From contig VCCI02000001.1 of assembly GCA_005938025.2 (NCBI GenBank), forward strand, positions 1,054,001 to 1,118,000: 64,000 bases of DNA. The letters run 5' to 3'. Positions 31,764 to 34,117 of this stretch are shown one piece after another. The stretch comes from Inquilinus sp. KBS0705. Lineage in GTDB: Bacteria > Bacteroidota > Bacteroidia > Sphingobacteriales > Sphingobacteriaceae. Made by a program: the position numbers and the translations under genes. The notes beneath the pieces are model-generated. The model saw nothing but the letters and a program-made list of their open reading frames with translations. It had not been told where the DNA came from and did no database searches. Each line of letters begins with the position of its first letter. The stretch's first letter is position 1.

Positions 31764-32288
31764 ATGAATTATTTTGAATTTTACGGCATTCCCGAAACGT
31801 TTAACCCGGATGTGGCGGCGCTTAAAAAGCAGTTTTATGTTTTAAGCAAGCAGTACCACCCCGATTTTTTTGCCAACGAGGATGATGAAAAACAGCAGGA
31901 GATATTAGAACTATCTACCCTGAATAATAAGGCTTATCAAACCCTAAGCGAGCCAAATAAGCGCCTGGCCTATATATTACAAAGCCATAATTTGCTAAAT
32001 GATGGTGCAAAACCACAATTACCGGCAGATTTTTTAATGGAAATGATGGATATTAATGAGCGCCTGATGGAAATTGAAAGCGCCCAGCAACTGGCCGATA
32101 TTACGGCGGAAGTGCTTGCCATTGAGAGCGATATAGACGAAGAACTGGCCGCATTAACGCAGGATTATGAGCAATTAGACGATACCGCAAAGGAAAGCCG
32201 CTTAAATGATATTGCAAATATTTACTTCAGGCAAAAATATCTGTTGCGGATTAAAGAGAGTTTAAATACATTTGCAGCCCGCTTATAA
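31764..32288 (+). CDS. hscB: Fe-S cluster assembly co-chaperone HscB
   Basis: The 174-residue protein has an N-terminal J-domain with the HPD motif in SKQYHPDFF (about 35), which stimulates the ATPase of an Hsp70 partner. A C-terminal three-helix HscB domain (about 90-170) contains LMEMMDINERLMEIE, which in HscB docks the scaffold IscU. The length matches the family. It is not next to other isc/suf genes here. A promoter for the following tRNA lies inside its 3' end. Confidence 0.92.
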   Translation: MNYFEFYGIPETFNPDVAALKKQFYVLSKQYHPDFFANEDDEKQQEILELSTLNNKAYQTLSEPNKRLAYILQSHNLLNDGAKPQLPADFLMEMMDINERLMEIESAQQLADITAEVLAIESDIDEELAALTQDYEQLDDTAKESRLNDIANIYFRQKYLLRIKESLNTFAARL

Positions 32289-32308: not shown

Positions 32309-32388
32309 GCCCAGCTGGCGGAATTGGTAGACGCGCTGGTCTCAAACACCTGTGGGAAACCGTGCCGGTTCGACTCCGGCGCTGGGTA
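32309..32388 (+). tRNA. tRNA-Leu (CAA)
   Basis: Acceptor GCCCAGC pairs with GCTGGGT (one G-T pair at position 1-72), A73 follows, and the anticodon loop CTCAAAC reads CAA. A long variable arm (TGTGGGAAACCGTG region) and T-arm GCCGG-TTCGACT-CCGGC are present. One T-T mismatch is seen in the anticodon stem (CTGGT/ACCTG). CCA is not encoded. It marks the left border of the AT-rich RES/Arr stretch. Confidence 0.93.
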
Positions 32389-32403
32389 CACATGAAAATG
32401 TGT

Positions 32404-32438
32404 AAAGGCTGTAAGTCAAGTACTTACGGCCTTTTTTA
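32404..32438 (+). terminator. Rho-independent terminator after tRNA-Leu(CAA)
   Basis: The stem AAAGGC-T-GTAAGT/ACTTAC-G-GCCTTT has a short loop and runs directly into TTTTTT. It sits 16 bases past the tRNA 3' end. Confidence 0.9.
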
Positions 32439-32514
32439 TTTATATACATACAGTTTTACATACACTATTTGTTATTTATTTTTTTCATGCTATCAGTATT
32501 TGATATATTTAAAT

Positions 32515-33330
32515 ATGGAAGAAATTATAATCCCTGATTATTTACAAAATCCTGCTCAAATACTGATTGCCTTAGACTTGCTTGAGAAAAAAAGCAGTGA
32601 ATTGCCATTTTTAGAACTTTATACTTTATTTGAGGATGCTCTTCGTATAAAAAGCGGTGATGGTTTACCAATTACAGCGGTGCATCTTGCTGGGCCAACA
32701 TGCCGCGCACGCTTACATGATAATAAATTTAATCAGGCTGATAACGTGAGATTAATTGGAGTAAAATTGACGGAAATTACACAAGGCAGAGCAAATCCGT
32801 TAAGCATCCCTATATTTTACGGATCAAATAGTAAAAAAACAGCGGCTTTTGAGGTACTTCAAGATTATGGACCTGGTTACTATCAAATTACAATTGGTTG
32901 TTGGGAATGCCAATCAGAATTACGATTAGTTAATTTCGTAGACGGCACTGATCCTGATTTTAAAGATATATCTTTTGTACATAGTCGCCCAAAAGAATAC
33001 TTACAGAGTTGGGATGCGATTCCTCGTGAATCAGCAACACATTTATTGGATTTCTTTAATTCAAGATTTAAAATGCCAAAGAAGCCTGGCTTTTATAACG
33101 TTACTAATGTAATAGCAGCCTTTTGTTTTTCCTTACTGGATGTAGATGGCATAGGCTATGGGGCTATTTCAAGTGGGTTTGCTGGCTATAATATCGCGCT
33201 AAAAAATCCATCCATTATAAAGTGCGTAACTGTCGAGGAATGGTCAATTACAAAATTTTACAATAACCAAATTAACGGGGTATGTACTAAAGTTGGAGCG
33301 ATTGATGATGCAGGAAACATTACTTGGTAA
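32515..33330 (+). CDS. RES-domain protein (putative NAD+-acting enzyme) at a tRNA-Leu gene
   Basis: The 271-residue protein has no signal peptide. It carries RES-family motifs: conserved Arg in TCRARLHDN (Arg64/66), GRANPLSIPIFYGSNSKKTAAFEV (Arg92, Tyr102, Glu113), and the C-terminal DVDGIGYGAISSGFAGYNIAL with candidate catalytic Ser. RES proteins have an ADP-ribosyltransferase-like fold, and the studied toxins destroy cellular NAD+. Those toxins are about 150-190 residues and follow an Xre/DUF2384 antitoxin gene. This one is longer, with about 55 extra N-terminal residues, and no antitoxin gene precedes it; tRNA-Leu and its terminator do. It may therefore be a stand-alone or orphaned RES protein. 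The reading frame is open further upstream, but that would run through the tRNA. Codon use is more AT-rich than in its neighbours, suggesting transfer. Confidence 0.72.
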   Translation: MEEIIIPDYLQNPAQILIALDLLEKKSSELPFLELYTLFEDALRIKSGDGLPITAVHLAGPTCRARLHDNKFNQADNVRLIGVKLTEITQGRANPLSIPIFYGSNSKKTAAFEVLQDYGPGYYQITIGCWECQSELRLVNFVDGTDPDFKDISFVHSRPKEYLQSWDAIPRESATHLLDFFNSRFKMPKKPGFYNVTNVIAAFCFSLLDVDGIGYGAISSGFAGYNIALKNPSIIKCVTVEEWSITKFYNNQINGVCTKVGAIDDAGNITW

Positions 33331-33498
33331 CTCAATTCATAACTTAAATTGGTCATAAAATCCCATTACTTTTCAAGAAGCGTAGAATTGGATACAACAA
33401 AATTTTGTATTCGATAGGTAACGCAATTTTTCATTTTGAGATTTATGATAATGTATTGATAGTTCAATCAAAAACGGGTTAGATAATTCAAATCGGCC

Positions 33499-33609
33499 TC
33501 AATCGTCAAATAGAGTGGCTAAACATTTCAGTGCATCTAAGGATAGTTCTTGATAGTAAATTCCCGGTTCGTTGTAAACATAACGCTGATCCAAATCTCT
33601 TATTGCGTT
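33499..33609 (-). pseudogene. Possible C-terminal gene remnant
   Basis: There are 36 open codons ending in TGA, reading NAIRDLDQRYVYNEPGIYY then QELSLDALKCLATLFDD. The amino-acid mix looks like a real folded C-terminus, but an in-frame TAA lies directly upstream and no start codon exists. I do not recognise a family. An opening this long could occur by chance in AT-rich DNA, so confidence is low. Confidence 0.25.
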
Positions 33610-33655
33610 TTAAAAAATATAGTTAATAAACACGTTTTAAGTGTTTTACATCATC

Positions 33656-33663
33656 TATTTTTG
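33656..33663 (+). promoter_or_regulatory. -7 box for arr
   Basis: TATTTTTG fits TAnnTTTG and lies 25 bases before the arr ATG, giving a leader of about 20 bases. No convincing -33 TTG; a TTTTA-rich tract takes its place. Confidence 0.5.
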
Positions 33664-33688
33664 ATGGTATACCAATAGAAAAACAGCT

Positions 33689-34117
33689 ATGAGTAGACCA
33701 ATAGAAACAGAAAAAGAAGTAAATACACAGCAATTCTTTCACGGTACAAAGGCCCGGCTAAAGCCCGGCGACTTACTTTCGCCGGGCTTTACTTCTAACT
33801 ACGGGAAGCAGAAAAAGGCCTTGTTTGTATACCTGACCGCAACAATGGATGCTGCCATTTGGGGAGCTGAACTTGCTTTAGGTGACGGGCCGGAAAGAAT
33901 TTATATAGTGCAGCCCACAGGCCCCATCGAGGATGACCCAAACTTAACAGATAAAAAGTTCCCGGGCAACCCAACCAAATCCTATCGCACCCGCGATCCT
34001 CTTTTGATCATCGGCGAAATTACCCATTGGCAGGGGCATTCACCTGAACAGCTAAAGGAAATGAAAGATAATGTTGCACGCATTAAAGCACTTGGAATAG
34101 AAGCTATTGAAGACTAA
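33689..34117 (+). CDS. arr: Rifamycin ADP-ribosyltransferase (Arr)
   Basis: The 142-residue cytoplasmic enzyme transfers ADP-ribose from NAD+ to the C23 hydroxyl of rifamycins, inactivating them. The length is the family norm. Motifs: FFHGTKARLKPGDLLSPG (His and NAD+-binding loop, about 17-34), FVYLTATMDAAIWGAELA (about 48-65) and YIVQPTGPIEDDPNLTDKKF (about 73-92, with the catalytic-region Asp residues), then GNPTKSYRTRDPL. It follows the RES gene and spacer on the same strand and converges on the GH95 gene with a 12-base gap. Its base composition is closer to the genome average than that of the RES gene. Confidence 0.93.
   Translation: MSRPIETEKEVNTQQFFHGTKARLKPGDLLSPGFTSNYGKQKKALFVYLTATMDAAIWGAELALGDGPERIYIVQPTGPIEDDPNLTDKKFPGNPTKSYRTRDPLLIIGEITHWQGHSPEQLKEMKDNVARIKALGIEAIED

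What the first reader, a model, noticed from the sequence alone, without database searches (positions are those of the whole stretch)
32515..33330. Long, antitoxin-less RES-domain protein
Characterised RES toxins are short and follow an Xre/DUF2384 antitoxin gene. This one has a full RES core (Arg64/66, Arg92, Tyr102, Glu113, Ser in GAISSG) plus about 55 extra N-terminal residues, and the gene before it is a tRNA. Either the antitoxin was lost and the protein has weakened or changed activity, or the N-terminal segment regulates it in cis.
Basis: partly seen in the sequence, partly recalled or inferred. Interest (0 to 1): 0.6.

Follow-up and report, generated by a model that had tools for sequence, protein, structure and literature searches.

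The report
Lone long RES enzyme, mobile cargo
This is a single, antitoxin-free gene for a probable NAD-consuming enzyme that was dropped beside a tRNA gene; its relatives travel in prophages, plasmids, integrons and restriction operons, which suggests (but does not prove) a role in phage defence, and this copy has an unusual change at a key active-site position.

Summary
The ORF at 32515-33330 (271 aa) is real and is a divergent RES-family protein without an antitoxin gene. It is not a toxin that lost its partner. It belongs to a broad family of "long RES" proteins (275-390 aa), all with a 46-76-residue N-terminal extension, none beside an Xre/DUF2384 antitoxin in the loci read. In 29 of 29 short RES genes of this genus an Xre gene lies directly upstream. 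Long-RES genes sit in prophages (Mu-like beside AbiH; P2-like in 68 of 5426 E. coli genomes; one beside a type V retron), at the end of type I and type III restriction operons, in integron cassettes and on plasmids. In the window the gene is a low-GC single-gene insertion of about 1.15 kb between tRNA-Leu(CAA) and a native arr gene; a relative carries the empty site. One reader detail is wrong: the conserved Ser is missing. All 28 other RES proteins aligned have Ser where this protein and its only close relative (Pedobacter, 48% identity) have Ala217; Ser219 is not equivalent. Best reading: stand-alone phage-defence-type NAD-directed effector, possibly with altered chemistry. Activity, trigger and N-terminal regulation are inferred; both structure predictions failed.

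The parts
31764..32288 (+). hscB (Fe-S co-chaperone), conserved chromosomal anchor left of the insertion
   Evidence: PF07743/TIGR00714; hscB found in 55 of 61 genomes of the genus, hscB-tRNA-Leu in 28 of 29 loci scanned
32309..32389 (+). tRNA-Leu(CAA); downstream side is a variable site carrying integrases/recombinases in relatives
   Evidence: ARAGORN; downstream ORFs differ from genome to genome
32390..33565 (.). inferred insertion (about 1.13-1.18 kb, ends approximate): RES gene plus one dispersed repeat, GC 33-36%
   Evidence: GC profile; empty site hscB-tRNA-Leu-arr in L119/G1397
32404..32434 (+). intrinsic-terminator-like hairpin after the tRNA, so the RES gene is probably its own transcription unit
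   Evidence: 13-pair stem and T run
32515..33330 (+). long RES-family protein, 271 aa
32515..32703 (+). N-terminal extension (residues 1-63), two predicted helices, typical of the long-RES family
   Evidence: 46-76 residues before the first Arg column in long RES, 4 in short RES; helices only from a low-confidence model
32704..33210 (+). RES core (residues 64-232) with Arg64, Arg92, Tyr102, Glu113, Asn226
   Evidence: alignments
33163..33165 (+). codon of Ala217, the column that is Ser in all 28 other RES proteins aligned apart from the Pedobacter homologue
33211..33327 (+). C-terminal tail ending G-x-I-x-W, shared by most long RES (window, Pedobacter, E. coli, flavobacteria)
33460..33555 (+). 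dispersed intergenic repeat of the genus (about 80 nt), single copy in this genome, at the right end of the insertion
33565..33688 (+). conserved 5' region of arr, marks the right edge of the insertion
   Evidence: 75-78% identity upstream of arr in L119, L123, L009
33689..34117 (+). arr, NAD(+)--rifampin ADP-ribosyltransferase; native neighbour of hscB in relatives, not part of the RES unit
   Evidence: NF033144 220 bits; beside hscB without RES in G1397, G1406, G186

Best explanation
The gene encodes a stand-alone long RES protein, a divergent ADP-ribosyltransferase-fold enzyme that acts on NAD+, carried as single-gene cargo into a tRNA-Leu(CAA) hot spot. Shown: homology to RES; N-terminal extension and C-terminal tail shared with a family of antitoxin-less proteins; insertion between tRNA and arr; relatives on prophages, plasmids, integron cassettes and at the end of restriction operons. 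Inferred: the family works as an abortive-infection-type effector, held inactive by its own extension, by oligomerisation or by an unknown host state, and, when a phage trigger releases it, cleaves or phosphorolyses NAD+ and stops the infected cell. For this particular protein the conserved active-site Ser is Ala, so its chemistry may be slower or different from that of NatT or MbcT.
For: RES homology; NAD-directed chemistry of RES enzymes from literature (PMC11535050, PMC12457610). Antitoxin-free in all long-RES loci read, against 29/29 short RES genes of the genus with an Xre gene directly upstream. Contexts: Mu-like prophage with AbiH; P2-like prophages of E. coli, single gene between ogr and the prophage end; prophage with retron V RT, cold-shock protein and DUF5677; type III mod-res-RES order inside a conjugative element; type I operon hsdM-hsdS-HATPase-hsdR-RES; beside a type III-A retron PRTase; beside KAP NTPase PDC-S20; integron cassettes with attC-like spacers. 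Insertion and empty site.
Against: No PADLOC model matches any long RES tested. Several long-RES loci have no recognisable defence gene nearby (L071, L072, L074, L080), and the association was not tested against a null. No phage or NAD assay. The catalytic Ser is replaced here, and Ala at the R, E or S position of GndR behaved like gene deletion (PMC12457610). NatT, the best-studied relative, showed no phage phenotype (PMC11535050).
Confidence: 0.5

Rival explanations
1. Catalytically altered or dead branch: this protein and its Pedobacter relative have lost the RES serine and now bind NAD+ or ADP-ribose derivatives as a sensor, decoy or dominant-negative regulator rather than destroying NAD+.
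For: Ser column is Ala only in these two; they form an isolated pair on a long stem, branch length 2.16, support 100/100; Ser219 is invariant in both but does not align with the catalytic Ser.
Against: All other core residues are kept and the gene is under purifying selection; Ser219, two residues on, could substitute; catalysis without the Ser has not been tested.
Confidence: 0.25
2. Stress or dormancy enzyme of the NatT/GndR type with an unknown protein partner encoded elsewhere, unrelated to phage.
For: NatT and GndR also have N-terminal additions, low toxicity alone and non-phage phenotypes (PMC11535050, PMC12457610).
Against: Those have an adjacent Xre partner and are core genes; this gene is a rare insertion (2 of 301 family genomes) and its kin ride on mobile elements.
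Confidence: 0.15
3. Orphan toxin neutralised in trans by the Xre antitoxin of the short RES-Xre pair in the same genome.
For: The genome holds a canonical pair at L001:1004-1498 / 1498-1980.
Against: Sequence similarity between long and short RES is confined to the core; the Pedobacter and E. coli relatives are likewise alone; no such cross-talk is known to me.
Confidence: 0.07
4. Decaying remnant of a mobile element with no present function.
For: Single gene without an integrase, beside a dispersed repeat.
Against: Intact ORF, pN 0.37 against saturated pS relative to Pedobacter, both ends of the protein conserved.
Confidence: 0.03

Closest known systems
RES-Xre (MbcTA / ParST / RES-Xre-Pp) type II toxin-antitoxin systems, COG5654/PF08808
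   Same: RES core with Arg, Arg, Tyr, Glu and Asn in register; probable NAD-directed ADP-ribosyltransferase fold
   Different: 271 aa instead of about 150; no Xre antitoxin; 63-residue N-terminal and about 39-residue C-terminal additions; Ala in place of the conserved Ser
NatT (Pseudomonas) and GndR (Legionella), RES proteins with an N-terminal flap/motif
   Same: Longer than minimal RES toxins; extra N-terminal material
   Different: In NatT the flap (residues 26-66) lies between the first two active-site arginines (R23-R82, 59 apart); here the extra residues lie before the first Arg and the two are 28 apart; no NatR/GndX partner gene
HEPN/RES proteins (PF18870 HEPN_RES_NTD1), often paired with a second conserved gene
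   Same: Antitoxin-less, long, proposed conflict effectors (PMC3710099); RES core aligns
   Different: N-terminal part 167-206 residues against 63 here; no PF18870 match to the window protein
E. coli P2-like prophage 'RES family NAD+ phosphorylase' WP_001060550.1
   Same: Long RES of 275 aa, stand-alone mobile cargo, same motif order and C-terminal G-x-I-x-W
   Different: About 21-25% identity; has the Ser; sits in a prophage rather than beside a tRNA as a lone insertion

Membership tests
RES domain family (PF08808) | Profile match over the curated cut-off | tested here: met
   23.2 bits against cut-off 23.2, borderline; relatives of the same family reach 55 bits
RES domain family (PF08808) | Conserved Arg and Glu of the R-E-S set, plus Tyr and Asn | tested here: met
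   Arg64, Arg92, Tyr102, Glu113, Asn226 invariant in 30 proteins
RES domain family (PF08808) | Conserved Ser of the R-E-S set | tested here: not met
   Ala217 in that column; Ser in 28 of 30 proteins
RES domain family (PF08808) | RES fold by structure | tested here: inconclusive
   AlphaFold pLDDT 34.7 and 37.3 with shallow alignments; no fold search was justified
RES-Xre type II toxin-antitoxin system | Adjacent Xre/DUF2384 antitoxin gene | tested here: not met
   None in the window or in the long-RES loci read; present in 29/29 short RES loci
RES-Xre type II toxin-antitoxin system | Toxic NAD+ depletion neutralised by the antitoxin | not testable with these tools
   needs a bench assay
HEPN/RES-NTD1 proteins | PF18870 N-terminal domain | tested here: not met
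   no match for the window protein; found in L152
NatT-type flap RES | Flap inserted between the first two active-site arginines, and a NatR partner | tested here: not met
   28 residues between Arg64 and Arg92; no partner gene (PMC11535050)
Known anti-phage defence systems | Match to a catalogued defence model | tested here: not met
   no PADLOC model for the window, E. coli, L039, L075 or L150 long RES
Known anti-phage defence systems | Location in mobile elements and defence operons | tested here: met
   met for several relatives; the window copy is a lone insertion at a tRNA
Known anti-phage defence systems | Protection against phage | not testable with these tools
   needs a plaque assay

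The most novel reading that the evidence does not exclude
Long RES proteins are a widespread, uncatalogued family of single-gene, antitoxin-free abortive-infection effectors that attack NAD(P)+ and are controlled by their own N-terminal extension; the branch in this window has replaced the RES serine and so does different chemistry on NAD+ or its derivatives.
Probability: 0.25. Interest if true: 0.7.

Novelty: new variant of a known kind. Interest (0 to 1): 0.5.

Why it matters
The physiological role of RES enzymes is an open question: a 2024 study states that no RES toxin-antitoxin system had been implicated in immunity (PMC11535050), while genomic surveys predict RES domains as immune effectors (PMC9503650). 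A family without antitoxin, repeatedly carried by prophages and restriction operons and already present in 68 of 5426 complete E. coli genomes, makes that question directly testable in laboratory E. coli. The Ser-to-Ala branch also asks which residues of the RES pocket are really needed.

Tried and rejected
(1) arr (33689-34117) as a functional partner of RES, two NAD-dependent enzymes side by side: rejected, since arr sits beside hscB without RES in G1397, G1406 and G186. (2) The dispersed repeat at 33460-33555 as a remnant of an antitoxin or partner gene: rejected, it is an intergenic repeat found at many unrelated places in the genus. (3) Attachment-site duplication of the tRNA 3' end: none in the window; the 23-nt imperfect direct repeat at 32453/33643 was not pursued, because its right copy lies in the native arr upstream region. 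(4) Hidden small ORF antitoxin: only spurious-looking ORFs of 20-48 aa in 32390-33690. (6) Close homologues in phage, plasmid, IMG/VR and GTDB collections with the window protein as query: none except Pedobacter. (7) PDB sequence search: only ParT (6d0h, 6d0i) at E about 1 among chance hits.

Full report
What is there. The window contains an intact ORF at 32515-33330 (+) coding for 271 aa. It follows hscB (31764-32288) and tRNA-Leu(CAA) (32309-32389), with a terminator-like hairpin at 32404-32434 between tRNA and gene. The next gene is arr, a rifampin ADP-ribosyltransferase (NF033144, 220 bits). Pfam RES (PF08808) is hit at exactly its cut-off, 23.2 bits, over residues 88-152. The family tally in 121 genomes of the genus shows short RES genes almost everywhere (113 genomes). 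Full-length relatives of the window protein are rare: one Pedobacter homologue (Leaf170, 48% identity, same 271 aa) among 301 family genomes, and nothing closer in the GTDB, IMG/VR, phage and plasmid scans made with the window protein.

It is an insertion. GC falls to 33-36% between about 32400 and 33650, against 40-50% around. In relatives hscB and the tRNA are kept (28 of 29 loci), while what follows the tRNA differs from genome to genome and includes integrases and recombinases (read from the translations, not by profile). One relative, G1397 (L119), has hscB, tRNA-Leu and arr with its conserved 5' region directly in a row: this is the empty site. The inserted piece runs from the tRNA end to about 33565 and holds only the RES gene and an 80-nt repeat that is dispersed in the genus. 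The ends are approximate. arr therefore belongs to the chromosome, not to the RES unit.

It has no antitoxin, and neither do its relatives. In 29 of 29 short RES genes of the genus an Xre-like gene lies directly upstream, usually overlapping by one base. The own genome also has one such pair. In contrast, distant full-length relatives of the window protein, found with a two-sequence profile and then a four-sequence profile, are 275-390 aa long and none has a DUF2384-type antitoxin beside it. The only HTH gene upstream is a plain HTH_3 regulator at 153 nt in L077. So the family as a whole is antitoxin-free; a recent loss in this genome is not needed.

The N-terminal extension is normal for this family. 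Before the first conserved Arg there are 63 residues here, 46-76 in the other long RES, 167-206 in the HEPN/RES group and 4 in short RES. Most members also share a C-terminal tail ending in G-x-I-x-W. Whether the extension covers the NAD+ pocket could not be tested: AlphaFold gave mean pLDDT 34.7 for the window protein and 37.3 for an IMG/VR prophage relative close to the E. coli protein.

The active site is almost, but not quite, complete. In an alignment of 30 RES proteins (20 long including the window, 5 HEPN/RES-type, 5 short) Arg64, Arg92, Tyr102, Glu113 and Asn226 are invariant. The serine that gives RES its S is present in 28 of 30, mostly within Y-P-S or V-P-S. Only the window protein and the Pedobacter homologue have Ala (Ala217) in that column. 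The spacing agrees with the literature: NatT Ser184 and Asn193 are nine apart (PMC11535050), as are Ala217 and Asn226. In GndR, changing the R, E or S residue to Ala behaved like deletion (PMC12457610). The pair forms a well-supported lineage on a long stem, and between its two members non-synonymous change is well below synonymous change (pN 0.37, pS 0.77 saturated), so the gene is maintained. How the change affects catalysis is unknown.

Where the relatives live. Pedobacter: a prophage with tape-measure and tail genes, beside AbiH and an IS110 element. Flavobacteria: directly after mod and res of a type III restriction system inside a conjugative element (four genomes, one element); directly after hsdR in a type I operon that also holds a 684-aa HATPase, and after a similar-looking protein in another genome; next to a PRTase of the type III-A retron kind; in three integron-cassette arrays whose spacers share attC-like ends. 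E. coli: 68 of 5426 complete genomes, 66 of them with nearly identical copies, single gene between ogr and the end of a P2-like prophage, annotated 'RES family NAD+ phosphorylase'; also phage P88_4B11, where the gene is split into two ORFs, and further prophages. One IMG/VR contig has the tail-completion gene S, retron V reverse transcriptase, cold-shock protein, DUF5677 and then RES. Plasmids: Polaromonas, Pantoea beside a KAP NTPase of PADLOC class PDC-S20, and HEPN/RES beside pifC on an F-like plasmid. Other long-RES loci show nothing suggestive (L071, L072, L074, L080). I did not run a statistical null, so the defence association is a strong impression, not a measured enrichment.

Mechanism. 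RES enzymes cleave or phosphorolyse NAD+ or NADP+ (literature cited above). The best-supported account is a stand-alone NAD-directed effector, moved between genomes singly, that is kept silent without an antitoxin and acts on infection. Shown: homology, family architecture, insertion, mobile and defence contexts of relatives. Inferred: NAD+ consumption by this protein, the phage trigger, and self-inhibition. The Ser-to-Ala change makes NAD+ consumption by this particular branch less certain than for the family.

Comparison with the known. It resembles RES-Xre toxins in its core but fails their defining gene arrangement and lacks the Ser, so it should be filed as a divergent variant within the RES superfamily, not as a RES-Xre toxin. 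It is not a HEPN/RES protein and not a NatT-type flap protein. Genomic surveys already describe HEPN/RES fusions and predict RES domains in immunity (PMC3710099, PMC9503650), so the general idea is not new; the stand-alone long family with these contexts I did not find described in the papers searched, which cover only open-licence literature.

Noticed in passing
window 33460-33555: About 80-nt intergenic repeat found at many unrelated places in other genomes of the genus (up to four per genome), but only once in this genome.
   Followed up: partly
window 33689-34117: Chromosomal arr (rifampin ADP-ribosyltransferase) that sits beside hscB in several relatives, on either side of it.
   Followed up: partly
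L001:1004-1980 (G000:C1 about 1940045-1941021): Canonical Xre-RES toxin-antitoxin pair in the same genome; one or more RES genes in 113 of 121 genomes of the genus.
   Followed up: yes
L150:2161-5828: P2-like prophage cargo: retron type V RT and cold-shock protein, then a DUF5677 protein and a long RES; a weak DUF5677 match also lies in the Pedobacter prophage (L006:8711-9604).
   Followed up: partly
L073:8533-10587 and L079:12628-14682: 684-aa HATPase-like protein beside or near long RES in two flavobacteria, once inside a type I restriction operon; no PADLOC model matches it.
   Followed up: partly
L075, L076, L081: Integron gene-cassette arrays in flavobacteria with attC-like spacers; long-RES genes are among the cassettes.
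   Followed up: partly
L077:6343-9039: HTH regulator, long RES, PRTase_III-A and a 104-aa protein in a row, resembling a type III-A retron locus with RES in place of the reverse transcriptase.
   Followed up: no
L152:2389-3894: HEPN/RES protein next to pifC on an F-like E. coli plasmid, where phage-exclusion genes are known to sit.
   Followed up: no
L082:5753-6585: In phage P88_4B11 the long-RES gene is split into two ORFs; intact copies exist in E. coli prophages.
   Followed up: no
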